Shown here piece by piece: positions 38,429-64,000 of a stretch of DNA of 64,000 nucleotides. Numbering within the stretch: the first letter of the stretch is position 1; each line of letters starts with the position of its first letter. The stretch is from contig CAMVOC010000001.1 of NCBI GenBank assembly GCA_947169045.1, forward strand, positions 1-64,000, read 5' to 3'. Under the pieces are notes generated by a model that was given only the letters and a program-made list of their open reading frames with translations, was not told where the DNA came from and did no database searches. Both the position numbers and the translations under genes were made by a program. The DNA is from an uncultured bacterium (GTDB lineage: Bacteria > Patescibacteriota > Gracilibacteria > Absconditabacterales > Absconditicoccaceae).

Positions 38429-40513
38429 ATGCCAACAACTGACCCAACTACAAACCCAGCAACACCAGCTATAGACCCAACAACGCAGAATCCAGCGACA
38501 CAAGAGCCAGCGACTCCACCAGCAGATCCTGCAGATTTTGTTTTAGATTTTGGGGATACAGTAGCAAAAGCTCCTGTACAAACGCAAGAAGAACCACTTG
38601 CAACAAGAAGCGAAGAAACAGGACAAACCAACGAAAAAGAAGAAACTCCAGAACCAATAGTCGAAGCTCCTACGCCAGAAGAAACAACACAACAGGAAAA
38701 CAAGACTGAACCAGCCAATGAAACAGCCTTAGAAGAGCTAGAAATCCCTCAACAAGAAGGGGATACAAGTACTCCAGCAGAGATTCCAACAGAGCCACTT
38801 GCAGAACCACAAACAGAAGCACCTGCAGAAACAACAATAGAAACGCCCACAGAAACACAAGCCGAAGCGCCAACAGAAACACCAATAGAGACTCCTACAG
38901 AAACTCAAACAGTAGAGCCTAGTATCTCAGAAGAGCCTCAACCAGTAGAAACACAACCAGAGTTTCAGCCAGAAATTCAACCAGAAACTCCAACAGCACC
39001 TGTGAATCCATCTGCAGAAGAACAACCTCAAGAAACTCCTCAAGTAGATCTTGCTCCTTCAGGAATATTTAAACCATTGCAGGGAGACGAAGATCCAAAT
39101 ACATCCACTACGACGCCAACCATTGAGCCTACTGCTGAGATTTCCACCCCATTTAATGATACGCCAGCAGAAACTACACAAGCAGCTCCACAAAGCACCT
39201 ATGAACCAACCGCAGAAGCCTTTAATCAAACCCTAAACGCTCTAAATACAGCAAAGGAAAACGGAGAAAATGTCATAATGTCTGACCAATTAAACGCTTC
39301 CGTATTTGCCGAAGAACCTGCAAAACCTGAAGAAACAGGACCAATGCTTTCTCTAGATGAAATGCTAGCAAAAAAGAATGGAGAGCTCCCAACTAACCCA
39401 GAAAATACCACTACCACAGAAAATACAGAAATGCCAGCACAAGAGCCTTCCATATGAGAAGCACAACCAGCGCCAGAAGGACAAGCTCCTGCCGTTGCAG
39501 ATGCTTTTGAGCCAATGAAACAAGCAATTGAAGAATACGAAAAAAAACAGCTAGAAAAAGATAATATTAATCCCGAAGGAATTCCTCTAGTAATCGACGT
39601 ACCACCAGAAGAAAAGAACATTCCTGAGCCAGCTCAACCAGAAATTCAAATCGAAGAGCCAGCTCCTGCTGAAGTTCCAGCAACCATCTCATTAGATCAG
39701 ATTCAAACACCAGAAATAGCTCCAACTCCAGCCCCAGATCCTATCCCTGAGCAGACACCAGCACCTGCACCCCAGCCAGCACCAACATCTAGCTCACTAA
39801 TTGATAAAATTAAACAACCTAAAACACTGATTCTCATCGGAGCATTAGTTGCTGCAGGGATAGCTGCTTATTTTCTGCTAATGCAATGAACTACATCAGC
39901 CCCTACAATCAATACCCCTACCATTACAACGCCCACTGACACCATAGAGCCTGATCTTACTATCCCAGAAGAGGAATCTGACCTCACACTTACCGGAGAT
40001 ACAACTACTTCTCCAGAATTTTCAGAGGGAGATATGGAGGAAGGATTTTGAGTAGCAGAAGAAATTGGAGAAGGAACAGATCGAGCGACAGGCCAACCAA
40101 GCGAACCGTTTCAACCAGACAGCGAAATAACCGATTCACAAATTTCTTCAGAAGAACTTCCCTCAGCAGAGGAGTTAAGTTTGCTATTTAGTAATTACGC
40201 AGAAATGGGTAATTCTTACCTAGACATTGGGGAATCACAAAATGACATTTTCCTAGTAAAATTTGGAGGATATTTAGCATATCATGGAAATCTTCTTGCA
40301 AATAATCCTCCTTTAGATATACAGGAATATTCCATACTAAAAACACGTATGAATGACATTTTAACTAAATTAAATCAATATCTTGATGGCTCATATGACC
40401 CAACTGCAGCCTCATCCCAGACAGAAACAGCGACCTTCGACCAAGCAGCATACGACGAAGCAGCCTATGAAGAAATCAAAAATTTCGTCGATGCACAAGG
40501 AGGATTGATTTAA
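38429..40513 (+). CDS. Large Pro/Thr/Glu-rich single-pass membrane protein
   Basis: The 694-residue protein has an acidic low-complexity N-terminal region of about 460 residues made of Thr-Pro-Glu-Ala imperfect repeats (such as ETPTETQAEAPTETPIETPT). One membrane helix follows at about residues 467-486 (TLILIGALVAAGIAAYFLL). After another acidic linker, a folded-looking C-terminal domain begins around residue 580 (LSLLFSNYAEMGNSYLDIGE). There are only three in-frame TGA codons. With no signal peptide, the long N-terminal region may be cytoplasmic, as in some cell-division or pilus scaffold proteins. I recognise no family. The C-terminal codons overlap the recombinase start. Confidence 0.75.
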
Positions 40514-41414
40514 TCAATACGAATTTGATAATACACTATCTACCCACCTCGAAAGATTCATAAATCACCTACAATACGCCAAAAATTCCTCTCCCAAAAC
40601 CGTAGAAAATTACTCTTTACGAATCAATAGATTCATCACGTATATTGGAGATATCACAGCAGAAAAGGTTAAAAGTCTGCATATTCAGGACTTTAGAATG
40701 TATCTCATACAGCAAGGACTCTCACCAAAGACCGTCAATTATCATATTGTGGCTCTTAGGTCTTTTTTTAAATTTCTCATCAGAAACGATATCGAAACCA
40801 TTTCTCCAGAAAAACTCGATTTAGCAAAGATTCCTCCTCGTCAAGTAAATTATTTAACAGAGGAAGAAGTAACGAAAATACTGGAGGCTCCGAAATCTAC
40901 ACATCCCGACTCCAATGTTCTAAGCCTCCGCGACACAGCAATCCTTCAAACTCTATATGGGACAGGACTTCGTGTCACCGAACTCATATCACTAAAAATC
41001 AACGATATCCATATCGATCAAAAACAATTTTCCATCATTGGAAAGGGGAGTAAACTACGTTCTGTCTTTATGACTCAGCAAGCCAAGACAGCCATACGTG
41101 AATACCTCTCTGCAAGGACAGACACATCAGATTTTTTATTTATTTCTCTTTCCAAAAACTCTTATGGTAAGCCACTTTCCAGAAATTCAATAGAAGCCAT
41201 CGTCAAACAATATGCCACACACGCAAGAATCAACAAAAAAGTAACTCCTCACACCCTGAGACACAGCTTTGCAACTTCACTACTTCGCAAAGGTGCAGAC
41301 ATCCGTTCAGTGCAGGCACTTCTTGGACATTCTTCTATTACTACCACGCAAATTTATACACACATCGACGATAAATTCTTACAAGAAGTACACAATTTAC
41401 TCGATCAAGAATAA
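40491..41414 (+). CDS. xerC: Tyrosine recombinase XerC/XerD
   Basis: The 307-residue phage-integrase-family recombinase has an N-terminal SAM-like domain (LERFINHLQYAKNSSPKTVE) and the catalytic residues. These are Arg in YGTGLRVTELISLK (about residue 161), then Lys, HTLRHSFATSLLRKG (HxxR), the His of LLGHSSITTTQ and the nucleophile Tyr in IYTHID. It has only one TGA, near the N-terminus. It is the size of chromosome-dimer-resolving XerC/D. No attachment sites were seen nearby, so a housekeeping role is favoured. The ATG at 40491 overlaps the upstream gene by 23 bases. Confidence 0.9.
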
Positions 41415-53217: not shown

Positions 53218-54846
53218 CTATTCTCCTTTCGGTTTCATCAATGGAAACATCACTACATCTCTCAAATTATCCTGCTCCGTCAAAATCGCTAAAATCCTCT
53301 CAATTCCCATTCCAAATCCAGACTGTGGAGGCATTCCATACTCCATAGCTTCGACAAACGCCTCATCACCTGCAGTAGCTTCTTCATCTCCTGAAGCCGC
53401 CTGTTTATCAAAATTTGCTTGTTGCAAAAGAGGATCTACCAATTCAGAATATGCCTTACAGATCTCCCATCCATTCACCAATAGCTGAAATTGCTCCACG
53501 ATGCAGTTATCACGATCAGAAACCCTCGCCAACGGTTGCATAATCAACGGATAATTATAGATAAACGCAGGTCAAACTACCTTTGGACGCAATACCTTTT
53601 TAAATAAATAATCAATAAGAGTCGGAGTTCCCATCTCGTCCATCCTTTCAAATTCTATACCTTTTGCCCTAATATCTGCGCGTAATTGATCAGCGTCTTC
53701 TTCTCAATATTTCGTAATATCTAGTCCAGAAGCCTCATTTACTCCTTTAATGTAATCAATCCTTTCTCGTGGAGTCGTAAAATCTACTTCCTTTTCAATT
53801 CAATCCTTATCTTTCACTCTGATTTTTTTATCTAATCACAAATGTTCAAACAAAAAATCCATCATTTTTTCAGTAAAACGCATATTATCTTCATAGTTCC
53901 AATACGCTGCATAATGTTCCACCTGCGTAAATTCTTGCAAATGTGACGGATCAGAACCTTCATTTCTAAAATCCTGCCCAATTTCAAATACCTTTTCAAA
54001 TCTTCCCACCGTCGCTTTTTTTAACGAAGTTTCAAACGCAATCCTCAAATAAACATCTAAATCAAAATCATTATGATGCGTAATAAACGGCTTAGCTGCA
54101 GCTCATGAAGCGGCATTATCCAAAATCGGAGTCTGAATCTCTACAAATCCTTCCTGCGTATAAAATTCCCTTAATAACTGATAAAACCTCGATTTAAATA
54201 AAAATCTCTTGTACGTTTCAGGATTCATCGTCATATCCAAATATCTCTTACGATAGAGCTCATCTTCATCCACCAATCCATGAAATTTCTCAGGTAGTCA
54301 GCGGATACTTTTAGATAAGAAAGAAAATTCTGATACAAAAATCGTCAATTCCCCTGTATGAGTACGAAAAACTTCACCCTTCACTCCGATAAAATCTCCA
54401 ATATCAACGAGCTTCTCCATAAATTTATACGCCGTACAACCCATTTCATCAGCAGGAGCAGAGGAGGTTGGTTGCAATTCTTGCAAAAGCTTTTCTCCAA
54501 TTCTAATGCTACAATTATCTCTATGAAACATCAATTGAATCTGATCCGTACTATCTAACAATTTAGCAAACGCCAATTTCCCATGACTACGATAGAGCAT
54601 CAACCTACCAGCAGTGGAAACCTGCACTTTCGGCTCAGCAATAATCGTTTCAATCTCCCTAAGCCTCACCCCATGTTCAGGAGCATGTTCCGGATCTAGA
54701 GAGCTTCCTCAATACGCCTTAATAATATCCCCGATCAAATGCGTTTTATCATAACTCTGAGCATAAGGGATAATCCCCAGATTTCTCATCCTCTGAAGTT
54801 TTTGAATACGAACATCTCTTTCAGATTGAGGTAACGATACATTCAT
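53218..54846 (-). CDS. lysS: Lysyl-tRNA synthetase (class II)
   Basis: The 542-residue class II synthetase has an N-terminal OB-fold anticodon domain ([20 protein letters not shown]). Motif 1 surrounds [20 protein letters not shown], motif 2 is [20 protein letters not shown], and motif 3 is [27 protein letters not shown] before motif 3 is typical of LysS. TGA codons read as Gly occur at several family-conserved positions. It charges tRNA-Lys. It is slightly longer than average owing to an insertion near residue 430. Confidence 0.94.
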
Positions 54847-54920
54847 CAATAGTAAAAAAAAGAAAAATAAATCTGACCATTTTTACCGTTTCTTCCTCAA
54901 ATTTCAAGCAGAAAAAGGCC

Positions 54921-54949
54921 TTGACTTTTCAAAGAAAATAACCTATAAT
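54921..54949 (+). promoter_or_regulatory. Array promoter 1
   Basis: TTGACT 54921-54926, 17-base spacer, TATAAT 54944-54949. It drives the gene at 54986. Confidence 0.75.
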
Positions 54950-54985
54950 ACAGAGAAATATGTAAAACAAAAAAGAGAAAAAAAG

Positions 54986-55447
54986 ATGACAAGAGACATA
55001 AATGCTTTAAATAAAACCTCAAGAATCATAGATAATGCTCTCGTTCTTATGAGAATAACGACAGAAATGCTAATCTCAGACCTAGAAAGAGGATATCCAA
55101 AGAAACTCTTGAATTACATCACTGTCCTCAGCGAATGTGAAAAACTAAAGAGCATCCTAGACCAAGATAGAAGCTCATGGATCGACCCAGATATCCTCAT
55201 AGGGGGGAAGTACAAAATCAGCGAGATCACCGACGATCTCAATGATCTAGAAATGTATGCGAGCGCACTATACTACCTCGAAAAAGAGACCCTGCTTCTC
55301 CATATAAATTTACGTCAATATGTAACGGATCTAGCACCATGGACCATCTCCGACTATACGTTTTATATAGACGTCGAAGATCCAGACATGGATATCACAG
55401 TTACATTAAGTCACGATCTCTGCCGAAACTATAACAACGAATCATAA
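54986..55447 (+). CDS. Array protein 1: helical, unknown (153 aa)
   Basis: This is the first member of the small-gene array. The 153-residue protein is mostly helical in its N-terminal two thirds (NKTSRIIDNALVLMRITTEM, KLLNYITVLSECEKLKSIL), with a C-terminal beta-like segment (YTFYIDVEDPDMDITVTLS). It has no signal peptide. It has no in-frame TGA and ends TAA 55445-55447, so it reads identically in both codes. It has its own promoter and terminator. No family was recognised. Confidence 0.7.
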   Translation: MTRDINALNKTSRIIDNALVLMRITTEMLISDLERGYPKKLLNYITVLSECEKLKSILDQDRSSWIDPDILIGGKYKISEITDDLNDLEMYASALYYLEKETLLLHINLRQYVTDLAPWTISDYTFYIDVEDPDMDITVTLSHDLCRNYNNES

Positions 55448-55457
55448 ACAGCAATAC

Positions 55458-55483
55458 AAAGAAGGTATTTTACCTTCTTTTTG
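55458..55483 (+). terminator. Array terminator 1
   Basis: Stem AAAGAAGGTA 55458-55467 and TACCTTCTTT 55471-55480, loop TTT, T run. Confidence 0.85.
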
Positions 55484-55545
55484 TAAACCAAACAAAAAAA
55501 TAAAGCTGACCATATTCTCTTTTATCATTTTTAAACGAAATAACA

Positions 55546-55573
55546 TTGACATTTTAACGGAAAACATTATAAT
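55546..55573 (+). promoter_or_regulatory. Array promoter 2
   Basis: TTGACA 55546-55551, 16-base spacer, TATAAT 55568-55573. Confidence 0.75.
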
Positions 55574-55620
55574 CAAGAAAAACAAATAATAAGTAGTAAA
55601 ACAAAAAAAGAGGAGATCCT

Positions 55621-56187
55621 ATGTCTTTAGAAAAAAAGAGACCAACAATCGCAATTTTTGCATTTTCAAAGCAACCTGCATTAGCGGGAGGCTCAGTACT
55701 AACAAAAAGGGAACTACAAGATCTAGAAAATACCAGATATGAATGGGAAAAAATCTTACGAAAATTTCATGGGAAACTAGAAGCATATTCCAGCACACCA
55801 AACGACATCAAAGAGCAAAAAACATTTCAAGAACAGCTCAAAGAATGTGCAGATGACACCATAGCACTCTGTACCGAACTAGAAAATTTAAAGACAGATA
55901 TGATTCCCATATTCCAAAAAGTCAGTGAATGCGAAGATTCCCCAAGCAATAACGAAAAAGTGTTCCTACAAGAGTTAACAAACATGAGAAAATGCAAAAT
56001 GCAACTTCGAAAAAGAGTAAAAGAAATCAGAAAAAGCAAAACAAGACTCATTCAAAAATCCAGAGAATTGATCAAAGAAGGACTAAGAATCCTTCCAGAT
56101 GAATCAATAAATGGCTCACTAATAGCCATCATTGAAACACACAAACAACTAAAAAAAGTCACAAATGAGTGGCCTATGATAAAATAA
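55621..56187 (+). CDS. Array protein 2: coiled-coil, paralogue of the 57455 gene (188 aa)
   Basis: The 188-residue charged helical protein is preceded by GAGGAG. It is clearly related to the array gene at 57455. Shared blocks include MIPIFQKVSECEDSPSNNEK against IIPIYQKVDKCENDPSKNDK. The blocks QLRKRVKEIRKSKTRLIQKS against QLRRKAKEIHDSKIKLLKKT also match, and both end in TNEWP or TRTWP. The N-terminal ~25 residues are more hydrophobic (TIAIFAFSKQPALAGGSVLT). It has no TGA codons. Its terminator stem overlaps the stop codon. Function unknown. Confidence 0.72.
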   Translation: MSLEKKRPTIAIFAFSKQPALAGGSVLTKRELQDLENTRYEWEKILRKFHGKLEAYSSTPNDIKEQKTFQEQLKECADDTIALCTELENLKTDMIPIFQKVSECEDSPSNNEKVFLQELTNMRKCKMQLRKRVKEIRKSKTRLIQKSRELIKEGLRILPDESINGSLIAIIETHKQLKKVTNEWPMIK

Positions 56188-56211
56188 AGAAGGCGTTTCG
56201 TCTTCTTTTTT
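56186..56211 (+). terminator. Array terminator 2
   Basis: AAAGAAGGCG 56186-56195, loop TTT, CGTCTTCTTT, T run. The 5' arm overlaps the TAA of the gene at 55621. Confidence 0.82.
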
Positions 56212-56230
56212 TACAAAATAAAAAAAGCTC

Positions 56231-56258
56231 TTGACTTTTACAAAAAAATGAGTATAGT
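56231..56258 (+). promoter_or_regulatory. Array promoter 3
   Basis: TTGACT 56231-56236, 16-base spacer, TATAGT 56253-56258. Confidence 0.7.
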
Positions 56259-56317
56259 AAAAAATACAAACAATAAACAAAGATAAAACTAAAGCATAAA
56301 TAAAAGGAGATTAAAAA

Positions 56318-56581
56318 ATGAAAGGTAAAGGATATCTTATCTTTACAGTGATACTAGCTCTTTTCATTATTTCTGGAATGAACTTTGGTATCGTGAATGA
56401 CACAGAAGCTTTCTCAAGAGCTAATGCCAACGCAGAAAAAGGTTGGTACTGCTCCGGATATCATAATGATAACGCAAACCATACTCGTATCGTAGTATTC
56501 AGAGATCGATATGGTAATGAGAAAGATCGCTATGAAGTACAGTGGGAAACTGGTAAAAAAATCTACGACAATTCCTATTAA
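56318..56581 (+). CDS. Array protein 3: small exported protein (87 aa)
   Basis: The 87-residue protein starts MKGKGYLIFTVILALFIISG, a signal peptide or membrane anchor. A short hydrophilic domain of about 55 residues follows (NAEKGWYCSGYHNDNANHTR, RDRYGNEKDRYEVQWETGKK). It is the only array member with an export signal and is glycine-rich (eight Gly, none TGA). A clear AAGGAG site precedes the ATG. Function unknown; it differs from the coiled-coil members although the promoter is shared. Confidence 0.7.
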   Translation: MKGKGYLIFTVILALFIISGMNFGIVNDTEAFSRANANAEKGWYCSGYHNDNANHTRIVVFRDRYGNEKDRYEVQWETGKKIYDNSY

Positions 56582-56608
56582 TAATTGATGAAATAAATGT
56601 TACTAAGG

Positions 56609-56639
56609 ACATCCCGAGGTTTTCCAGGGATGTTTTTTT
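56609..56639 (+). terminator. Array terminator 3 (different stem)
   Basis: ACATCCC 56609-56615 and GGGATGT 56627-56633, followed by T run. It is unlike the AAGAAGG-type stems of the other units. Confidence 0.8.
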
Positions 56640-56699
56640 AAAAAAGATAAAAAAAATCTGATTTTTCATCTCTTTTTTGTAATTTCAAACCATAAAATC

Positions 56700-56727
56700 T
56701 TGACTTTCAAATAAAAAATACTATATT
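56700..56727 (+). promoter_or_regulatory. Array promoter 4
   Basis: TTGACT 56700-56705, 16-base spacer, TATATT 56722-56727. Confidence 0.7.
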
Positions 56728-56764
56728 ATGAAAAAAAATTATTAAAAAAAATAGGAATAAAAAT

Positions 56765-57295
56765 ATGGCAGAACAAAAGCCACAATCTCTAAAAGAAAAA
56801 TTAGAGACATTAAACTCTGTCCTATCTTTATGGGACAAAAGATTAGGAGACGCCAATGAGTATCTCAGATTAGTTGCTGTAAATCTGTTCAATGCAGAGA
56901 AATTAAGCAAGTTTCTAGATGAGTTAAAAGAACGACTCTCCGACACGAAAACACTTAATGACAAAGTAGCATTGCTACGACAAGGGACCATAGCATCTCT
57001 CCTCGAAACCATACAGCAATGTCACGAATCAATGACGAGCAAAGCATTCGAACTAGACGAAGAATTCCCTAAAAAACTAAAGGAACTCCAAAAAGGGAAA
57101 GAACAGCTCATCAAAGAAATAAAAAGTTTTCAATGGGATAGAGACATCCTAATCGGAGATACGAAAGAGCTGCAAAAAAAGGTAAAAGAATTCTTACCTG
57201 AGAAATACCAAAATGGTATTGACTTCGATAAGGAAATAAAAGACCTTGTCTGGCAATCTTTCGAAATAGAAAACAAATTCACCAATGAAAAGTAA
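56765..57295 (+). CDS. Array protein 4: coiled-coil (176 aa)
   Basis: The 176-residue highly charged helical protein (SLKEKLETLNSVLSLWDKRL, KKLKELQKGKEQLIKEIKSF) ends FEIENKFTNEK. It contains no signal peptide, no TGA codons and no recognised domain. Hydrophobic residues repeat at heptad-like spacing, which suggests coiled coils. Its own promoter and AAGAAGGCG-type terminator flank it. Function unknown. Confidence 0.7.
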   Translation: MAEQKPQSLKEKLETLNSVLSLWDKRLGDANEYLRLVAVNLFNAEKLSKFLDELKERLSDTKTLNDKVALLRQGTIASLLETIQQCHESMTSKAFELDEEFPKKLKELQKGKEQLIKEIKSFQWDRDILIGDTKELQKKVKEFLPEKYQNGIDFDKEIKDLVWQSFEIENKFTNEK

Positions 57296-57303
57296 ACAAC
57301 ACA

Positions 57304-57331
57304 AAAGAAGGCGTTTCGTCTTCTTTTTTTT
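57304..57331 (+). terminator. Array terminator 4
   Basis: AAAGAAGGCG 57304-57313, loop TTT, CGTCTTCTTT and T run. Confidence 0.82.
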
Positions 57332-57394
57332 AACAAAAGCAAAAAAATCTGATTTTTATCTCTTTGCCCTCTTAAACTACCAACCAAACTGACA

Positions 57395-57422
57395 TTGACT
57401 TTTAATAAAGAATAATTATAAT
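57395..57422 (+). promoter_or_regulatory. Array promoter 5
   Basis: TTGACT 57395-57400, 16-base spacer, TATAAT 57417-57422. Confidence 0.75.
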
Positions 57423-57454
57423 CAAGCATTGATAATAAAAAAACAGGAGAAATT

Positions 57455-57961
57455 ATGTTAACAAAAGGGCGATTATTAACAAAATGGGAGCTGTTTGATC
57501 TAAATTTTGCAGGCGTTAAATGGGATGAAGCTTTTGAAAAATTAAGTAGTGACGTATTACAACCATGCATCGTGCAACTACATGCTACGAAAAAATTAGA
57601 AGAAGAAACCCAAAAAAAAGTCAAAGAATGCCAAACTGATGCAACAGAAATTCGCAAGAAGCTAAACGAGTTAAGAGAAAACATAATACCGATCTACCAA
57701 AAAGTAGATAAATGCGAAAACGATCCCAGCAAAAACGATAAAGAATTCTTAAAAGAGCTAGAAAGAATCGGAAGAGACAAAGTACAGCTCCGAAGAAAAG
57801 CAAAAGAAATACACGACAGCAAAATCAAACTCCTCAAAAAAACCAAAGAATTTATGGAAACAACGGGAAAGTTACTACCAGACGAATTCAAAAACACCGC
57901 AGTTGAAGTACAAAAAGAAATACGAAAAACAACAAGAACATGGCCATTATTACAATTATAA
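57455..57961 (+). CDS. Array protein 5: coiled-coil, paralogue of the 55621 gene (168 aa)
   Basis: The 168-residue helical protein starts MLTKGRLLTKWELFDLNFAG and is related to array protein 2 along its length. Compare LTKREL with LTKWEL and the shared IP-QKV---E/C block. It lacks the hydrophobic start of protein 2. It has no TGA codons. Ribosome site GGAG. The paralogy shows that the array grew at least partly by duplication. Function unknown. Confidence 0.72.
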   Translation: MLTKGRLLTKWELFDLNFAGVKWDEAFEKLSSDVLQPCIVQLHATKKLEEETQKKVKECQTDATEIRKKLNELRENIIPIYQKVDKCENDPSKNDKEFLKELERIGRDKVQLRRKAKEIHDSKIKLLKKTKEFMETTGKLLPDEFKNTAVEVQKEIRKTTRTWPLLQL

Positions 57962-57979
57962 ACCTCCAAAAATTTTTTC

Positions 57980-58007
57980 AAAGAAGATGTTTCATCTTCT
58001 TTTTTTA
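57980..58007 (+). terminator. Array terminator 5
   Basis: AAAGAAGATG 57980-57989, loop TTT, CATCTTCTTT 57993-58002, T run. Confidence 0.85.
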
Positions 58008-58070
58008 CAAAAGAAAAAAAGCTGACAGCCAATTTACACATTTTCTAGAACTTTCAGCCAAAAAAAGCTA

Positions 58071-58098
58071 TTGACTTTTTATTAAAAATAATTATAAT
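58071..58098 (+). promoter_or_regulatory. Array promoter 6
   Basis: TTGACT 58071-58076, 16-base spacer, TATAAT 58093-58098. Confidence 0.75.
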
Positions 58099-58151
58099 AA
58101 AGAATATAAGCAAACCACAAAATCATTATAAACAAAAAAAAGAGGAATGTT

Positions 58152-58562
58152 ATGAGAATAACAGATGAAAGCTCATTTCAGCAAGAAATAGCAGAAGAAA
58201 AAACAAAAATTAGAGAGATTCAAGCAAAGTTAGATGATCTCACCACAGAAATAGAAGATCTCAAAGCAGAAATAAGAGATCATATAGCAGATATAGAGGG
58301 AGACACCGAGGATTATTCCGAGACACTCCTAGATCTCATGAATATGTTAGAGAAACTAGAAGATGAAGAGAAATCCCTCATCAATACTATCAATCTCCTA
58401 AAAGAGATAGAAAAAGAACTCGAAAAAATACTACACAGCTACACCAAAGAAGCACAAGCATCTCTAAAAGAGATAAAAAAAACTATTAAAAACGCAAAAA
58501 GTTCAACAAAAAAATTTGAGACACGCCTAACGAAAACTCAAGAGCGTATCGAAACAGTGTAA
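58152..58562 (+). CDS. Array protein 6: long coiled-coil (136 aa)
   Basis: The 136-residue protein is nearly one continuous coiled coil with strong heptads (KIREIQAKLDDLTTEIEDLK, EDEEKSLINTINLLKEIEKE). It has a single glycine and no TGA codons. It shows the general spectrin-like look of laminin- or SMC-type coils but no specific family. Ribosome site GAGG. Function unknown. Confidence 0.7.
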   Translation: MRITDESSFQQEIAEEKTKIREIQAKLDDLTTEIEDLKAEIRDHIADIEGDTEDYSETLLDLMNMLEKLEDEEKSLINTINLLKEIEKELEKILHSYTKEAQASLKEIKKTIKNAKSSTKKFETRLTKTQERIETV

Positions 58563-58590
58563 AGCGCAGAAAATATGATAAAATCCATAA

Positions 58591-58617
58591 AAAGAAGGTT
58601 ATTTACCTTCTTTTTTT
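58591..58617 (+). terminator. Array terminator 6
   Basis: AAAGAAGGT 58591-58599 and ACCTTCTTT with a five-base loop, T run. Confidence 0.85.
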
Positions 58618-58627
58618 AATATTTACA

Positions 58628-58655
58628 TTGACTTTAGACAAAAAATTATTATAAT
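58628..58655 (+). promoter_or_regulatory. Array promoter 7
   Basis: TTGACT 58628-58633, 16-base spacer, TATAAT 58650-58655, only 11 bases after the preceding terminator. Confidence 0.75.
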
Positions 58656-58703
58656 AAAAAAATAAACAAAATCATTAATAAACCACTTAAAGGAAAGGTA
58701 ATT

Positions 58704-59033
58704 ATGACAAAAGAAAAAGCACAAAACGAACAATGGATAGCATCCGACTCCATACAATTAATTGAAACAAAAATCTACAAATTAGCGAGTCTAAGAGAAT
58801 ACGAGACAATGTTATGGAATTTCTTAATGTGCATAAAAAATGCACAAATCATAGAAACAAGACTAAAAAATGAGACAATTCTGTACGACGACACAAAGTT
58901 TTGGGAGGTCCTCGACTCTACACTCTGTAAAACCGAGAAAGACATCCTAGAAAAAATCAAAAGGGCTGCAAATAGCCAAAAAGAAGAGAGAAAGACAATA
59001 CACGAACTATTATGCGAAATTCAAAAACTGTAA
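58704..59033 (+). CDS. Array protein 7: helical, related to the 61626 gene (109 aa)
   Basis: The 109-residue helical protein contains LREYETMLWNFLMCIKNAQ, which lines up with LREYQRMLNDLIERIKATQ of the array gene at 61626 (LREY, ML, IK and Q identical in position). It has two Cys and contains no glycine at all. Ribosome site GGAAAGG. No TGA codons. Function unknown. Confidence 0.68.
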   Translation: MTKEKAQNEQWIASDSIQLIETKIYKLASLREYETMLWNFLMCIKNAQIIETRLKNETILYDDTKFWEVLDSTLCKTEKDILEKIKRAANSQKEERKTIHELLCEIQKL

Positions 59034-59046
59034 ATTTCCATATGAC

Positions 59047-59077
59047 AAAGAGGGAGAAACACTCCTTCTTTTTTTTA
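59047..59077 (+). terminator. Array terminator 7
   Basis: AAAGAGGGAG and CTCCTTCTTT with a five-base loop (one mismatch), long T run. Confidence 0.78.
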
Positions 59078-59136
59078 ATAAAAGTAAAAAAATCAGATTT
59101 TTATCTCTTTCCCCCTTAAATCAAGAGCAAAAAGGC

Positions 59137-59164
59137 TTGACTCTACATAAAAAATACATATAAA
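59137..59164 (+). promoter_or_regulatory. Array promoter 8
   Basis: TTGACT 59137-59142, 16-base spacer, TATAAA 59159-59164. It serves two genes (59208 and 59717). Confidence 0.68.
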
Positions 59165-59207
59165 CAATGAATAATAATAAAATGTTAAACTAACAGAAAC
59201 AAAACAT

Positions 59208-59702
59208 ATGAAAAAAATAGCAATACAGCAGATAAAGACCCTGCAACAAGTGTATAATGAGCTAATAGAAAGGTTTGTTCTCATAAAAGATGCAGCAGAC
59301 CTTATCTTATTAAGATCCAAAGAGGACCTAAAGCTCTGCTGGGCTCTCAGGCAAGAGGGATTAAGACTTCTAAATGAGAATGGATTACTAATGAATGAAG
59401 TCATCGACCTTGAAAAGGACTCCAATCAACTTCTCATTGAATCAAAAGAATATGCCGAATACGTAGAAAAAGGAGATTACGCCAAAAAACAGCACGAAGA
59501 ATTCAAAGAGGAGCTCAATCACTTCTCAATAGAAGTAGAAATCGCTCAAAAAGATACGGAAAAATTCATCAAAAAAGCAGATGATTTCCTAATCAAAATA
59601 ACGAACGCCATAAAAAACACCGACGAAATCGGAAAGCAAAGATGGGAAGCTTTCCAAGAAAAATGGAATTTCTTAAAAACAAAAATAGAAAAAGAATCAT
59701 AA
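59208..59702 (+). CDS. Array protein 8: coiled-coil (164 aa)
   Basis: The 164-residue helical protein (KIAIQQIKTLQQVYNELIER, LIESKEYAEYVEKGDYAKKQ, IEVEIAQKDTEKFIKKADDF) has no TGA codons and no clear Shine-Dalgarno sequence. It ends 14 bases before the next gene with no terminator between, so the two form a bicistron, one of two exceptions to the one-gene-one-promoter rule in the array. Function unknown. Confidence 0.68.
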   Translation: MKKIAIQQIKTLQQVYNELIERFVLIKDAADLILLRSKEDLKLCWALRQEGLRLLNENGLLMNEVIDLEKDSNQLLIESKEYAEYVEKGDYAKKQHEEFKEELNHFSIEVEIAQKDTEKFIKKADDFLIKITNAIKNTDEIGKQRWEAFQEKWNFLKTKIEKES

Positions 59703-59716
59703 AGATAGGAGTATAT

Positions 59717-60109
59717 ATGACCAAAAAAGAAACATATTTGTTAGAAATAGGCAATCTCTTAACAGAAGTCGAAGAATTTCGAAAAAACGTACGAAATGTA
59801 CTCATCGACGTGATAGAATACACCCATACAGGACCAGGAATCGGAGAAAAAGAATGCGCTCTCAGGATGAAATCCATGCTCTTAGGAGACATAGAAATGG
59901 AATTACACAACGTGGAGAAACGCTTAATTCAAAAGATAATAGCTCTAATAAATATGTCAGAGCAGGAAGTTCTCTCAATGAGCTACACGACAGAAATAAC
60001 AATTTTCTTAGAGGGGGTAAAAGAATATAAAAAATTCAGAGAAGCCACTCTCGAAGAAATAAAAGAAACCGTTGAAAAATTCAAAAATACGGAAACAAGT
60101 AAAGAATAA
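59717..60109 (+). CDS. Array protein 9: helical (130 aa), second gene of a bicistron
   Basis: The 130-residue protein starts MTKKETYLLEIGNLLTEVEE after an AGGAG site. It is helical with a short loop THTGPGIGEKE and ends EKFKNTETSKE. The frame is open upstream, but the ATG at 59717 has the ribosome site and lies just after the previous stop. No TGA codons. Function unknown. Confidence 0.68.
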   Translation: MTKKETYLLEIGNLLTEVEEFRKNVRNVLIDVIEYTHTGPGIGEKECALRMKSMLLGDIEMELHNVEKRLIQKIIALINMSEQEVLSMSYTTEITIFLEGVKEYKKFREATLEEIKETVEKFKNTETSKE

Positions 60110-60114
60110 AAACG

Positions 60115-60142
60115 AAAGAAGGTATTTTTACCTTCTTTTTTT
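60115..60142 (+). terminator. Array terminator 9
   Basis: AAAGAAGGTA 60115-60124, TTTT loop, TACCTTCTTT, T run. Confidence 0.85.
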
Positions 60143-60152
60143 GAAATATCTA

Positions 60153-60180
60153 TTGACTTTTGAATAAAAATAAATATAAT
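60153..60180 (+). promoter_or_regulatory. Array promoter 10
   Basis: TTGACT 60153-60158, 16-base spacer, TATAAT 60175-60180. Confidence 0.75.
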
Positions 60181-60216
60181 AAAAAATATTAATAAAAAAC
60201 AAAGAGGCTAAAGCAT

Positions 60217-60573
60217 ATGGAAAAAAAAGAAGAACTACAAGAAAAAATTACAAAATACTTGATGCAGATCAGAGCAACAGAAAACAAATTCTTCGACTGC
60301 ATAGATCAAATACAAAAATACATGGAAAGACAAGTCGAACCAAATGAAGAAGAGCTTCTACGAGGAATAATAGCACTGCTAAACGACGAAATAGAACATC
60401 TACAAGGAAGAGAATCGGAATTGGAAGACAAAGACGATCTCTTATCCCAAAAAGAAGAACCTCCTATCGCGTGGCTAGCAGATGCAAAAGAAACACTAAA
60501 ACTAGCAGACAAAGACATACAAGAAGCAGAAACATTCCTTAAAAAAATAGAAGAATCTCCCATCAAACACTAA
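60217..60573 (+). CDS. Array protein 10: charged helical (118 aa)
   Basis: The 118-residue acidic helical protein (MEKKEELQEKITKYLMQIRA, IALLNDEIEHLQGRESELED, ADKDIQEAETFLKKIEESP) has no export signal, no TGA codons and no recognised domain. No terminator follows, so the gene at 60622 is probably co-transcribed. Function unknown. Confidence 0.68.
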   Translation: MEKKEELQEKITKYLMQIRATENKFFDCIDQIQKYMERQVEPNEEELLRGIIALLNDEIEHLQGRESELEDKDDLLSQKEEPPIAWLADAKETLKLADKDIQEAETFLKKIEESPIKH

Positions 60574-60621
60574 AACATAAGACAAAAATTACTATTACAA
60601 ATAATAAATTGGAGAAAAAAA

Positions 60622-61026
60622 ATGGAAAAGCAAAACACTCACAAAACAAGAAGACACGAATCCAGAAATCTTGCCCCAAACGGCAAACCTAAAGACAAAG
60701 TACTAAAAGACCCAAAAAGTATAAAAAAAGCAACAAACTTTCTAAACAGAACATATGTAAACTTCACAGAGACAAAAGCTCTGCTAAAAGAAAAGAATCA
60801 GCTTCTAAAGTGCGAAAACAAACTACCAGAAGAAGCTATAACATTATTAAAGAATCTCAATGAATATATGGTATGTTTAGATTTCTGTTTGCCTGTACTC
60901 CAAGAGGATCTCGAAAAGAGAAAAACTTCAGAACAATCATTAAATATCTTAAGAGAAGCGTTGATACATTTACCAACAGCTAAAAAATGCCTTCTGAAGG
61001 ATCTACCTGAAGTACCAAAGAAATAA
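60622..61026 (+). CDS. Array protein 11: basic helical (134 aa)
   Basis: The 134-residue protein has a basic, probably flexible N-terminus (KTRRHESRNLAPNGKPKDKV) and a helical remainder (FTETKALLKEKNQLLKCENK, NEYMVCLDFCLPVLQEDLEK) with four Cys. GGAG site before ATG. There is no own promoter of the TTGACT type, so it is probably read from the promoter at 60153. No TGA codons. Function unknown. Confidence 0.66.
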   Translation: MEKQNTHKTRRHESRNLAPNGKPKDKVLKDPKSIKKATNFLNRTYVNFTETKALLKEKNQLLKCENKLPEEAITLLKNLNEYMVCLDFCLPVLQEDLEKRKTSEQSLNILREALIHLPTAKKCLLKDLPEVPKK

Positions 61027-61038
61027 AAAAACGCAGCA

Positions 61039-61067
61039 AAAAGGAGGTATTTTTACCTTCTTTTTTT
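61039..61067 (+). terminator. Array terminator 11
   Basis: AAGGAGGTA and TACCTTCTT (one wobble or mismatch) with short T loop, T run. Confidence 0.8.
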
Positions 61068-61071
61068 AATA

Positions 61072-61099
61072 TTGACTTTACGTCAAAAATAGATACAAT
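61072..61099 (+). promoter_or_regulatory. Array promoter 12
   Basis: TTGACT 61072-61077, 16-base spacer, TACAAT 61094-61099. Confidence 0.7.
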
Positions 61100-61141
61100 C
61101 AAGCAGTTAAACTACTACTCACCAATAAAAGGAACAAAATT

Positions 61142-61513
61142 ATGATACAAAAATTATCAGAATTAGAAAAACAAAGTGAAGAAAAAAATAGCCTTATCAT
61201 AGCAAAAGAAACGATTCTCGTAGAGACCTATCATCATCTCAAGCATTTCCACTCTTCACCAGGAGGCACCTCCAAAAGAGAGAAATTATTGCTAGATTTT
61301 ACAGATAAAGTCATCAATGATACAGAGCGACTCGAAAAAGAGACGAAGGAATTCCTACGCAACATCGAAGAAGATATCAGCAAAATAGAAAATCCTTTAA
61401 ACGAAGTAAAACACACAAGAGATGAGATCAAAACAGGACTACAAAAATTAAAGAATCTAAAAGAAATCGTAAAAAAAGCCAAAAAAGAAATGACAGAGCA
61501 GAGGATAGGCTAA
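61142..61513 (+). CDS. Array protein 12: coiled-coil (123 aa)
   Basis: The 123-residue protein (MIQKLSELEKQSEEKNSLII, DTERLEKETKEFLRNIEEDI, KLKNLKEIVKKAKKEMTEQR) is coiled-coil apart from a short loop SSPGGTSKREK near residue 40. No TGA codons. Site AAGGA before ATG. Function unknown. Confidence 0.68.
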   Translation: MIQKLSELEKQSEEKNSLIIAKETILVETYHHLKHFHSSPGGTSKREKLLLDFTDKVINDTERLEKETKEFLRNIEEDISKIENPLNEVKHTRDEIKTGLQKLKNLKEIVKKAKKEMTEQRIG

Positions 61514-61526
61514 GAAACTAACACAC

Positions 61527-61554
61527 AAAGAAGGTTATCTACCTTCTTTTTTTT
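61527..61554 (+). terminator. Array terminator 12
   Basis: AAAGAAGGT 61527-61535 and ACCTTCTTT 61541-61549, loop TATCT, T run. Confidence 0.85.
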
Positions 61555-61566
61555 CATGTTTTAGTA

Positions 61567-61594
61567 TTGATTTTGAGCAAAAAATACGTATGAA
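61567..61594 (+). promoter_or_regulatory. Array promoter 13 (weakest match)
   Basis: TTGATT 61567-61572, 16-base spacer, TATGAA 61589-61594. Confidence 0.5.
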
Positions 61595-61625
61595 GAAGCT
61601 AATAATAAACAAAAGGAATAACAAT

Positions 61626-62045
61626 ATGGATGAAACATTAGCCAAAATATCAACAAAAAGTAGAGAAAAACTTGATATCCTAATCAATAGAGAAGTCAAT
61701 TTAAGAGAATATCAACGTATGCTAAACGATCTCATAGAACGGATCAAAGCTACACAAACGGCGACAGAAAGAGACAAAAGCCTACTAAAGCATATAAAAG
61801 AACGCATCAATGAGACCGAAGAAGTCATAGAATATTCAAAAGAATACGTAAATCTCACCAAAAAAGAAATCAATACTATCAAGGCTTCCGCACTAGGATT
61901 CATCAGACAAATGGAAATAGAAAAAATCGTCAAAAACATCAAAAAGACGCTAAAAGAAATAAAAGAAGAAATAAAAGAAATCCTACCAATAAAAATGCAG
62001 GTAACTAACACGCTAAACCGCGTTTTAGCTCAAATGAATATCTAA
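61626..62045 (+). CDS. Array protein 13: helical, related to the 58704 gene (139 aa)
   Basis: The 139-residue helical protein contains LREYQRMLNDLIERIKATQ, aligned with the same region of array protein 7. A second amphipathic coil follows (ERINETEEVIEYSKEYVNLT) and a lysine-rich part (VKNIKKTLKEIKEEIKEILP). I chose ATG 61626 (with AAGGA) over the in-frame ATG at 61590. No TGA codons. Function unknown. Confidence 0.68.
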   Translation: MDETLAKISTKSREKLDILINREVNLREYQRMLNDLIERIKATQTATERDKSLLKHIKERINETEEVIEYSKEYVNLTKKEINTIKASALGFIRQMEIEKIVKNIKKTLKEIKEEIKEILPIKMQVTNTLNRVLAQMNI

Positions 62046-62053
62046 AAAAATAA

Positions 62054-62080
62054 AAGGAGGTCGTTTCGCCTTCTTTTTTA
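62054..62080 (+). terminator. Array terminator 13
   Basis: AAGGAGGTCG, loop TTT, CGCCTTCTT (imperfect), T run. Confidence 0.75.
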
Positions 62081-62082
62081 TA

Positions 62083-62111
62083 TTGACTTTTAGCTAAAAA
62101 ATAACTATAGT
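62083..62111 (+). promoter_or_regulatory. Array promoter 14
   Basis: TTGACT 62083-62088, 17-base spacer, TATAGT 62106-62111. Confidence 0.7.
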
Positions 62112-62142
62112 AATCAAATCACACATATAGGGTAAAACACAA

Positions 62143-62589
62143 ATGAACAAAAGCAGAAAAACAATGAAAATACTGGAGATCCTCACAGAAGCGAGAGAAA
62201 TCCTAAGAAGTGCCGAAGAACCTCTAAATAAGGTGAAACAACCAAGAGATCTTGCAGAAAAAGCCGTACAACTCCTAAACGACAAAGGAATCCTCGAAAA
62301 AAGAGGATTAGACCTCAAAATGAAACACCTTACATATATGGAGGAATTTGTTAAGGCTCTACGCCAACCTCAACCTACAGAGGAGCAAGCAGAGGAGCTA
62401 CTAAACAAACAAAAGGCACTCGGAAAGGGTACACAGGAACTCTTAACTCAAATCATTATGTTTCTAAACAACACTTGGGACCTTTTAAACAAAACTCGCG
62501 AATTAAACAGAGAAAGAAGCATCATAAAACACTCTCTCAATAAAACAGAGCTCCTTCTCTACGAAATCACTATAATACAAGGTGAATAA
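62143..62589 (+). CDS. Array protein 14: helical (148 aa)
   Basis: The 148-residue helical protein (MKILEILTEAREILRSAEEP, QPTEEQAEELLNKQKALGKG, TWDLLNKTRELNRERSIIKH) has no TGA codons, no export signal and no recognised family. It shares the SAEEPLNKVKQPRD-type short linker with the ENPLNEVKHTRD segment of array protein 12, suggesting distant relationship. Function unknown. Confidence 0.68.
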   Translation: MNKSRKTMKILEILTEAREILRSAEEPLNKVKQPRDLAEKAVQLLNDKGILEKRGLDLKMKHLTYMEEFVKALRQPQPTEEQAEELLNKQKALGKGTQELLTQIIMFLNNTWDLLNKTRELNRERSIIKHSLNKTELLLYEITIIQGE

Positions 62590-62604
62590 CAACAAATCAG
62601 ATGC

Positions 62605-62630
62605 AAAGAAGGCGTTTCGTCTTCTTTTTT
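62605..62630 (+). terminator. Array terminator 14
   Basis: AAAGAAGGCG 62605-62614, loop TTT, CGTCTTCTTT, T run. Identical in stem to terminators 2 and 4. Confidence 0.83.
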
Positions 62631-62695
62631 AATAAAAAAACAAAAAAAATCTGATTTTTATCTCTTTTTTTTATGAAAGCTACACACAAAAAGCA

Positions 62696-62724
62696 TTGAC
62701 TTTTGATAAACCAAAACATATAAA
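62696..62724 (+). promoter_or_regulatory. Array promoter 15
   Basis: TTGACT 62696-62701, 17-base spacer, TATAAA 62719-62724. Confidence 0.68.
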
Positions 62725-62768
62725 GAACACATAAACAAAAAATCTTCAAACAAAAAACAAAGAGAAAT

Positions 62769-63278
62769 ATGATAAAATTAGAACAACAAATAAGGCTTCT
62801 CCTAGAAACCAACAGATGCCTTATGAAAGCGTGGACGTACCTAAAAGACACAGGGAATCTTCTCTTATTCGCGAAAAAGCTGGATCCAGAACAAAGGAAT
62901 AAACTCAAAAAAGAAGGATGCGAGCTCAAAGAAGAAGTAACCACCTTCTTAGATAGAGCTGAAGAGTTAATACATCAAGCAAAAAAAATCCAAGAAAAAA
63001 TAGATGAATTCTCAGCATGGGAACCAACACAGACAGAGAAAAAAGATGAATTCTTAAAGCAAGCAGGAGAATTTTTCAAAGATGCAGGTGTATTCCTGAG
63101 AGAAACTGGGGATTTTATCAGAGAAATGGGAGAATTCGTAGAAGAGACCGGAGAATTCATTGAAGAAGCTGAAGAATTCATAGAAAAAGCCGAAGAATTC
63201 CTTAAAAAAACAGAGGAAATCCTACACGACGAAGAAGAATTACCAACAGAAGCAGAAAGTACTTCAAAAAAAGAATAA
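62769..63278 (+). CDS. Array protein 15: helical with perfect heptad repeats (169 aa)
   Basis: The 169-residue protein has a normal helical first half (LEQQIRLLLETNRCLMKAWT). From about residue 99 to 154 it has eight consecutive seven-residue repeats of the form AGEFFKD, AGVFLRE, TGDFIRE, MGEFVEE, TGEFIEE, AEEFIEK, AEEFLKK, TEEILHD. This is reminiscent of LEA-like or apolipoprotein-like amphipathic helices. It ends with a Glu/Ser-rich tail. No TGA codons although seven glycines occur. Function unknown. Confidence 0.7.
   Translation: MIKLEQQIRLLLETNRCLMKAWTYLKDTGNLLLFAKKLDPEQRNKLKKEGCELKEEVTTFLDRAEELIHQAKKIQEKIDEFSAWEPTQTEKKDEFLKQAGEFFKDAGVFLRETGDFIREMGEFVEETGEFIEEAEEFIEKAEEFLKKTEEILHDEEELPTEAESTSKKE
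63063..63230 (+). repeat. Eight 21-base coding repeats (heptads) in array protein 15
   Basis: Each unit encodes [A/T/M]-[G/E]-E-F-[F/L/I/V]-x-x. GAATTC recurs at the Glu-Phe position in several units, indicating DNA-level duplication rather than only protein-level selection. Confidence 0.75.
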
Positions 63279-63300
63279 AGAGTAAAAATTTTACTTTAGG

Positions 63301-63328
63301 AAAGAAGGTTATCTACCTTCTTTTTTTT
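63301..63328 (+). terminator. Array terminator 15 (right end of array)
   Basis: AAAGAAGGT 63301-63309 and ACCTTCTTT, loop TATCT, eight T residues. Same stem and loop as terminator 12. Confidence 0.85.
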
Positions 63329-63374: not shown

Positions 63375-64000
63375 ATGAATCACCTCAATACCATGATAAA
63401 AGTACAAAAAGCTGATCTTCCTCAACGGAGTATTTCCGAGGTTTTTCCAATTTTTCAAGCACATCTCACCTCAGAGCATCAGCTTTTTATCGCTGTTTCT
63501 ACAGGAGCAGACAGTATGACACTGGCTTGCCTCACCGCCCGACGACGAAACAATCAAAATTTCCCACTTCAAAACTTGCATTTTCTCCATTGTAACCATA
63601 AAATTAGACCAGAAAGCGAAGAGGAATCAGCTTTTTTCGCTTCCTTTTTTCAGTGATTTGATACACAACGTTTTGAAAAACCTGATACAGTAAAAACAGA
63701 CGAAAACGCTCTCAGAAACCGAAGATACGCTTGTTTTAATGACGCCATAACAAGCAAAACAAAACAACCTACAGACAAAGTATTCCTTCTTACCTGACAT
63801 AATCTCAACGACCGCATCGAAACAACATTTCTCAACGTACTGCGCGGATGCTCATTGGACGGATTTCTCAATATGCACGTCCTCTCCCAGCAAAAATCCA
63901 CAACATACCTACGTCCACTCCTGACTACGACAAAATCTCAAATCCTAGAAGCTTGCCAAACGTTACAAATCCCATACTTCACAGATTCCACCAATCTTGA
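63375..64000 (+). CDS. tilS: tRNA(Ile)-lysidine synthetase, N-terminal part (3' end outside window)
   Basis: The visible 208 residues match TilS: a PP-loop ATPase motif LFIAVSTGADSMTLACL (the SGGxDS equivalent), LHFLHCNHKIRPESEEE, ENALRNRRYACF, then LLTGHNLNDRIETTFLNVLR and GCSLDGFL. TGA at 63656, in TGHN and in other places is read as Gly. TilS converts C34 of tRNA-Ile(CAU) to lysidine so that it reads AUA. An ATG 18 bases downstream could also start it. The array ends just before it, and its own promoter was not identified. Confidence 0.88.

What the first reader, a model, noticed from the sequence alone, without database searches (positions are those of the whole stretch)
54905..63328. Tandem array of ~15 small helical genes, nearly all with a clone-like promoter and terminator
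Seen: from 54986 to 63278, fifteen short same-strand ORFs (87-188 aa), thirteen of which have an upstream TTGACT(TTT)-16/17-TATAAT promoter. Most are followed by a hairpin built on AAGAAGG...CCTTCTT plus T run. Only two adjacent pairs (59208/59717 and 60217/60622) lack an internal promoter. Proteins are mostly coiled coil; pairs 55621/57455 and 58704/61626 are visibly homologous, others have diverged beyond recognition. Inference: this looks like a duplicating, rapidly diverging gene family where each copy is independently and strongly transcribed, possibly effector, surface-variation or structural cargo proteins of an epibiont. No known system of this layout comes to mind.
Basis: partly seen in the sequence, partly recalled or inferred. 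Interest (0 to 1): 0.85.

Follow-up and report, generated by a model that had tools for sequence, protein, structure and literature searches.

The report
Island of self-contained small helical genes
A tiny bacterium that reads TGA as glycine carries a row of fifteen small genes of unknown function, nearly all separated by copies of the same stop-and-start transcription signal; similar rows are known from viruses of bacteria, and finding one in a bacterial chromosome, seen so far in one species, is unusual but not without precedent in design.

Summary
In detail: 15 plus-strand ORFs (54986-63278) lie between lysS and tilS of a TGA=Gly genome, in 13 transcription units, 12 of which end in variants of one hairpin. 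One claim fails: 58704/61626 are not visibly homologous. Supported protein groups are g02/g04/g05, g08/g10/g14/g15 and g12/g13. The strict hairpin occurs nowhere else in the genome; the promoter is the genome's general consensus. The ORFs have 0 TGA among 56 Gly codons (same-strand neighbours 26 of 161), without ribosomal-type codon preference overall. Searches with two of the three groups found no convincing relative; the strict unit pattern occurs in 1 of 353 class genomes. The layout has precedents in phages (PeSL cassettes; viral contig L157). Best reading: a species-specific island of mostly soluble helical proteins whose repeated junctions let units duplicate and shuffle; mobile or in-situ origin is unresolved. 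Function is inferred, not shown.

The parts
54986..55447 (+). g01, 153 aa ORF, third-position use like local plus-strand genes
55621..56187 (+). g02, 188 aa, helical bundle, group A
56318..56581 (+). g03, 87 aa, odd one out: N-terminal hydrophobic segment, own unrelated terminator, T-rich third positions
56765..57295 (+). g04, 176 aa, group A
57455..57961 (+). g05, 168 aa, group A
58152..58562 (+). g06, 136 aa, coiled coil
58704..59033 (+). g07, 109 aa
59208..59702 (+). g08, 164 aa, group B, first gene of a two-gene unit
59717..60109 (+). g09, 130 aa, second gene of the g08 unit
60217..60573 (+). g10, 118 aa, group B (weak link, z 4.9 to g15), first gene of a two-gene unit
60622..61026 (+). 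g11, 134 aa, second gene of the g10 unit
61142..61513 (+). g12, 123 aa, group C
61626..62045 (+). g13, 139 aa, group C
62143..62589 (+). g14, 148 aa, group B
62769..63278 (+). g15, 169 aa, group B
54921..54949 (+). promoter of g01
55546..55573 (+). promoter of g02
56231..56258 (+). promoter of g03
56700..56727 (+). promoter of g04
57395..57422 (+). promoter of g05
58071..58098 (+). promoter of g06
58628..58655 (+). promoter of g07
59137..59164 (+). promoter of g08-g09, loose match
60153..60180 (+). promoter of g10-g11
61072..61099 (+). promoter of g12
61567..61594 (+). promoter of g13, weak match
62083..62111 (+). promoter of g14
62696..62724 (+). promoter of g15, loose match
55458..55482 (+). 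terminator after g01
56186..56210 (+). terminator after g02
56609..56633 (+). terminator after g03, unrelated hairpin
   Evidence: by eye
57304..57328 (+). terminator after g04, same hairpin sequence as after g02 and g14
57980..58004 (+). terminator after g05
58591..58615 (+). terminator after g06
59047..59071 (+). terminator after g07, variant
60115..60139 (+). terminator after g09
61038..61065 (+). terminator after g11
61527..61551 (+). terminator after g12, 28 of 28 bases as after g15
62052..62077 (+). terminator after g13
62605..62629 (+). terminator after g14
63301..63325 (+). terminator after g15, right end of the island
57345..57365 (+). spacer element between terminator and promoter (g04|g05 junction)
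59090..59110 (+). spacer element (g07|g08 junction)
62647..62667 (+). spacer element (g14|g15 junction)
56651..56678 (+). spacer element, variant (g03|g04 junction)

Best explanation
A species-specific cassette island. Each unit is promoter, one or two short ORFs, and a hairpin terminator; the composite junction (terminator, optional spacer with a 21-base element, promoter) is repeated between units and is the conserved part, while the ORFs differ. Shown: homologous junctions, ORF pieces without comparable similarity, strict hairpin restricted to the array, three paralogue groups, no in-frame TGA. Inferred: the repeated junctions serve as homology for recombination, so units duplicate, are lost or exchange ORFs, and every ORF that lands there is transcribed on its own and insulated from its neighbours. 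Most products look like soluble helical-bundle or coiled-coil proteins without a membrane segment. I infer that they act by binding partner proteins (of the bacterium, its bacterial host or its phages) and that the island is kept as a store of such binders. It works like phage PeSL cassettes; it is not shown to be one.
For: Junction pairs: 91, median z 6.3, 34 at z>=8; length-matched ORF ends: 0 of 210 at z>=8. Examples: J05/J08 97 of 117 aligned bases (5 gaps), J05/J15 90 of 103 (6 gaps), J13/J16 28 of 28; no pair among g05, g08 and g15 is in the printed top 8 of whole-ORF DNA comparisons (z 3.2 or more). Strict hairpin found only in the array. Protein groups A, B, C: 7 of 78 core pairs above the highest of 783 controls. 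g02 model: helices at 29-57, 64-106, 112-157 and 160-181, mean pLDDT 81, residues 1-23 unreliable. Same design in viral contig L157: 17 junctions, median z 14.8; 18 ORFs, median z 0.2.
Against: Similarity sits in terminator, element and promoter; 5' leaders are not alike (median z 0.8, 0 of 55 pairs at z>=8; 11 of 14 junctions tested), so selection on signals alone could explain much of it. No relative with the array was found to show actual shuffling. Unlike the phage contig, 13 of 15 ORFs here are of one helical type, which favours plain duplication, and g02/g05 keep DNA similarity over their ORFs (z 18.9). Function rests on helix content only; the g02 model matches nothing beyond generic bundles and the g08 model is poor (pLDDT 57).
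Confidence: 0.45

Rival explanations
1. Captured early or accessory region of a phage or other mobile element, carried into the chromosome whole and now domesticated or decaying.
For: 0 of 56 Gly codons are TGA against 26 of 161 in same-strand neighbours (Fisher 4.7e-4); TGA occurs 34 and 52 times in the other two frames. TGA is the most depleted codon and codon use does not follow ribosomal genes (rho -0.01). Predicted code-11-compatible phages of these bacteria lack in-frame TGA (PMC10746230, passages). Layout as in viral contig L157. The strict unit pattern is in no other genome of 353 in the class.
Against: No PHROG match for 10 of 15 ORFs scanned except weak hits of the coiled coil g06; no tblastn match in phage records for 2 of 15; no viral relative for two profiles. 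Prophages reported in these bacteria are TGA-dense. TGA use does not differ significantly from that of ribosomal-type genes (p 0.22). Spacers between -35 and -10 resemble those of other chromosomal promoters (by eye). Third positions lean the same way as plus-strand neighbours.
Confidence: 0.25
2. Ordinary tandem duplication of one helical gene with its signals, followed by fast divergence of the proteins under diversifying selection; junctions look conserved only because promoter and terminator are constrained.
For: Groups A, B, C; shift of all remaining core pairs over controls; hairpin variants differ by paired changes (by eye); 5' leaders not conserved.
Against: Parts of the spacers outside hairpin and promoter are alike too (median z 4.5, 5 of 21 pairs at z>=8, 7 spacers), though this includes the 21-base element; such spacers would hardly survive divergence that erases the ORFs unless constrained. 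g01 and g03 are of other types. Profiles of the three groups do not match each other.
Confidence: 0.22
3. Integron-like cassette array moved by a site-specific recombinase.
For: Many short same-strand ORFs with a repeated inverted repeat between them. The genome's one tyrosine recombinase passes the cut-off of NF040815, which NCBI describes as 'site-specific tyrosine recombinase/integron integrase' (XerA type; 246 against 220 bits).
Against: That recombinase lies about 13.5 kb away and is under the cut-offs of both integron-integrase models (TIGR02249 150 of 265 bits, NF011946 93 of 435) and also of XerC and XerD, its best match by E-value being XerD. Each unit has its own promoter and a plain terminator hairpin.
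Confidence: 0.04

Closest known systems
PeSLs (promoter early stem-loops) of T4-type phages, Arbiol et al. 2010 and Comeau et al. 2014 (originals not held; cited in PMC4503421, of which I read passages; details partly from recall)
   Same: Composite promoter plus stem-loop repeated between small orphan genes; junctions conserved, ORFs not.
   Different: Here in a bacterial chromosome; host-type promoter; most ORFs are one helical type; shuffling between relatives not observable.
SPO1 host-takeover module (PMC6873191, passages read)
   Same: Cluster of mostly small genes with promoters characteristic of highly expressed genes, in a 12.4 kb terminal region.
   Different: A phage module acting on its host; no homology tested or claimed; toxicity of the array proteins unknown.
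IMG/VR contig IMGVR_UViG_3300031994_000440 (L157)
   Same: 18 small ORFs by my selection, 21 promoters by a loose pattern, strongly alike junctions, unrelated ORFs.
   Different: Different stem-loop and promoter sequence; ORFs of varied type; assigned viral by IMG/VR, not tested here.
Integron cassette arrays (general knowledge)
   Same: Tandem same-strand small ORFs with inverted repeats between them.
   Different: Own promoters, no recombinase next to the array.

Membership tests
PeSL cassette region (T4-type phages) | stem-loop and promoter combined in one repeated intergenic element | tested here: met
PeSL cassette region (T4-type phages) | intergenic elements more alike than the ORFs between them | tested here: met
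   34 of 91 junction pairs at z>=8, 0 of 210 ORF-end pairs
PeSL cassette region (T4-type phages) | lies in a phage genome | tested here: not met
   lies between lysS and tilS in a 198 kb contig; no phage family match beyond coiled-coil noise for the 10 of 15 ORFs scanned
PeSL cassette region (T4-type phages) | different ORF sets between the same elements in close relatives | not testable with these tools
   no relative with the strict unit pattern in 353 class genomes
SPO1-type host-takeover module | products inhibit growth of a bacterial host | not testable with these tools
   needs expression
Integron | integron integrase next to the array | tested here: not met
   one tyrosine recombinase in the genome, about 13.5 kb away, under both integron-integrase cut-offs though over that of NF040815 (XerA type, described as 'site-specific tyrosine recombinase/integron integrase')
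Integron | attC sites | not tested
   no attC model was run
One paralogous gene family | all members homologous | tested here: inconclusive
   three groups above controls; g01, g03, g06, g07, g09, g11 ungrouped
Known protein families (Pfam, NCBIfam) | score over the family's curated cut-off | tested here: not met
   Pfam: 0 of 15 ORFs; NCBIfam: 0 of the 10 scanned
Known phage or defence families (PHROGs, PADLOC) | clear match (these libraries carry no cut-off) | tested here: inconclusive
   10 of 15 ORFs scanned in each; only weak matches of the coiled-coil kind, best E 0.0016 (PHROGs) and 9.8e-5 (PADLOC, g02 to PbeC, 19.5 bits)

The most novel reading that the evidence does not exclude
A chromosomal gene-shuffling island in an epibiont bacterium, built like phage PeSL regions, that assembles an arsenal of small helical binding proteins and whose ORFs read the same in the standard code and in the TGA=Gly code, so that units could move between the epibiont, its standard-code host and their shared phages.
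Probability: 0.12. Interest if true: 0.85.

Novelty: new variant of a known kind. Interest (0 to 1): 0.52.

Why it matters
PeSL-type cassettes are described from phages; a bacterial chromosome using the same device would be a route for making lineage-specific genes in very reduced genomes. The code-neutral ORFs bear on how genes cross the barrier of a changed genetic code. The proteins are candidates for the unknown factors by which such epibionts deal with host cells or phages.

Tried and rejected
Synteny: lysS was found in 21 of 21 chosen family genomes and tilS in 21 of 21, but no tilS lay in any of the 20 stretches upstream of lysS that I fetched, so no empty site could be compared; several stretches are short or end at a contig edge. 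In G144, whose lysS is closest (81%), tilS is on the same contig about 7.6 kb beyond the other end of lysS, with other genes between.

High expression as the cause of TGA avoidance: the ribosomal-type set also uses little TGA (10 of 279 Gly codons) and the array prefers AGA as it does, but over all codons there is no correlation with ribosomal preference. Not excluded for TGA alone (array against this set p 0.22). That set had 16 ORFs. Ten were checked by Pfam: nine are ribosomal proteins, and the 618-aa one had no match at 1e-8, so it was wrongly included; it gives 0 of 56 of the Gly codons. One search left it out. I took the other six by sequence from recall.

Regulon idea: the 21-base spacer element has 24 sites genome-wide, 3 in the array. 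Of 20 other contexts fetched, 7 lie within about 65 bases before a start codon and 13 fall in an ORF of my rough caller, two counted in both. No functional hint.

Searches covered only part of the array. Whole-genome and viral searches used the group A profile and the group B profile without g10; group C and g01, g03, g06, g07, g09, g10, g11 were not searched there. Weak hits of profile A in 8 other genomes (E 2.8e-4 to 0.0097) and of profile B in 2 (E 0.004 and 0.005) were taken as coiled-coil chance matches and not followed. Weak T7SS-associated Pfam hits (DUF5344, DUF5081, YwqH-like; the link is from recall) are below cut-off and were not pursued. Rfam: one sub-threshold match. Fold searches against the PDB and BFVD gave no match at E<=0.001; the best VIA-align rows are de novo bundles at Z 12.9 to 13.4, below the typical best of 14 that the tool quotes for helical models.

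Same-layout loci: 74 genome contigs (once each) and 16 viral contigs matched the unit pattern. A rough promoter and hairpin count over all loci then held led me to inspect only L157, L161 and L162; L102 and L090, with 2 or 3 hairpins, were not looked at.

In one search, 3 of 14 junctions dropped out of the spacer and leader comparison because my promoter pattern missed them or they have none (g02|g03, g13|g14 and the last).

Papers: PMC6873191, PMC10746230, PMC4503421, PMC8080830 and PMC5348500 were seen as passages only (PMC5348500 gave only a reference entry). The PeSL originals (PMC4122927, PMC2839356) are not held; I first knew of PeSLs from recall. Searches for reports of such arrays; nothing in the listings was such a report in these bacteria, but beyond the five papers only listings were read.


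Full report
Setting. The window is the start of a 198 kb contig of an 873 kb genome, 93% complete. lysS (53218-54849, minus) reads through seven TGA codons as Gly, so the genome uses code 25 (SR1/Absconditabacteria or Gracilibacteria; which one was not settled). The array lies between lysS and a tilS-like ORF at 63375 (the names lysS and tilS are from recall of the sequences, not from a family search).

Anatomy. Fifteen ORFs of 87-188 aa run on the plus strand. There are 13 units, because g08-g09 and g10-g11 share a promoter. Ten promoters pass a strict scan, three only a looser one. The promoter is the genome's own consensus: 50 exact sites, 5 in the array where 0.44 would be expected at the genome rate. 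Twelve of 13 units end in one family of hairpins. The strict form of that hairpin was found nowhere else in the genome. g03 stands out with a hydrophobic N-terminus, a different terminator and T-rich third positions.

Junctions against genes. I compared the 14 longer intergenic junctions with each other and, at matched length, the two ends of the 15 ORFs. Of 91 junction pairs 34 reach z>=8 (median 6.3). Of 210 ORF-end pairs none does (medians 0.2 and 0.4, maxima 5.9 and 7.6). In a whole-ORF DNA comparison g02/g05 stands out (z 18.9), followed by g10/g15 (6.6) and g14/g15 (5.2); the median is 0.7. The shared part runs from hairpin to -10 box. Leaders after the promoter are not alike (0 of 55 pairs at z>=8; 11 of 14 junctions), and the seven longer spacers outside hairpin and promoter are partly alike (5 of 21 pairs at z>=8), which includes a 21-base element. 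That element has 24 sites genome-wide.

Proteins. BLASTP links g02, g04 and g05. With window-shuffled scores and 29 own-genome control segments, 7 of 78 core pairs exceed all 783 controls, giving groups g02/g04/g05, g08/g10/g14/g15 and g12/g13; g05/g15 lies at the threshold. A smaller control set (7 segments) gave the same picture. The other core pairs are shifted upward (p 2e-16), but pairs are not independent and heptad repeats are a confound; a coiled-coil control from SMC was sought in this genome and not found, the only match being g06 itself. Profile-profile comparison between groups finds nothing convincing. No Pfam family reaches its cut-off for any of 15 ORFs, and no NCBIfam family for the 10 scanned. 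PHROGs and PADLOC gave weak coiled-coil matches among 10 scanned in each. g02 is predicted as a helical bundle, pLDDT 81; g08 poorly, 57.

Codons. The array has 0 TGA in 56 Gly codons; same-strand neighbours 26 of 161 (p 4.7e-4); a ribosomal-type set 10 of 279, of which 56 come from one ORF that proved not identifiable. TGA occurs 34 and 52 times in the other frames, so it is not avoided as a word. Apart from g01 and g03 the array is A-rich at third positions (0.47-0.63) compared with most plus-strand neighbours (0.34-0.47; one at 0.51). The plus strand here is C-rich and so probably lagging (inference). Codon preference does not follow ribosomal genes (rho -0.01). This fits code-neutral or foreign ORFs somewhat better than plain high expression, but expression is not excluded for TGA itself (p 0.22).

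Distribution. Group A profile: 9 of 288 class genomes at E<=0.01, but only the own genome is convincing (the rest E 2.8e-4 to 0.0097). Group B profile: 3 of 49 family genomes, again only the own genome convincing. Group C and seven further ORFs were not searched. Strict unit pattern: 1 of 353 class genomes; it matches only 2 junctions of the own array, so it would miss diverged arrays. In seven same-genus relatives the exact promoter shows no such cluster in the rows printed; the rows were cut before the last genome's were complete, and six of the seven have few such sites (3 to 22, G144 has 83), so this is a weak test except for G144. No confirmed relative in genome contigs or viral contigs for group A, or in viral contigs for group B.

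Comparison. Viral contig L157 carries 18 short ORFs (my selection) with 17 junctions that are strongly alike (median z 14.8) and ORFs that are not (median 0.2, maximum 4.8). A second viral contig, L161, has nearly the same stem-loop sequence as L157. This is the design described for PeSL cassettes of T4-type phages (cited in PMC4503421, passages). SPO1's host-takeover module also has mostly small genes with strong promoters (PMC6873191, passages). Predicted phages of these bacteria that lack in-frame TGA are reported, while their prophages are TGA-dense (PMC10746230, passages).

Verdict. I favour a cassette island with junctions as recombination homology, working like PeSLs without being shown to be one; capture from a phage and plain tandem duplication remain open. 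What the proteins do is inference.

Noticed in passing
window 57345-57365 and contexts L170-L189: A 21-base element (AAATCTGATTTTTATCTCTTT, up to 3 mismatches) has 24 sites genome-wide against 1 for the reversed pattern; of 20 contexts outside the array 7 lie within about 65 bases before start codons of unrelated genes, one rpoA-like (name from recall).
   Followed up: partly
IMG/VR contigs L157 and L161: Two viral contigs carry repeated TTTAGATGTTNAACATCTAA stem-loops with promoters beside them, in L157 between unrelated small ORFs: PeSL-like cassettes.
   Followed up: partly
window 14167-36532: A low-GC cluster (0.25-0.34 for the genes measured) rich in TGA glycine codons, in contrast to the rest of the window; looks like a surface-polysaccharide cluster (from recall).
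   Followed up: no
whole genome G000: A search with the SMC_prok_B model gave one match only, g06 of the array by coiled-coil chance; no SMC protein was seen in this 93% complete genome.
   Followed up: no
window 40383-41414: The only tyrosine recombinase found in the genome, Xer type.
   Followed up: partly
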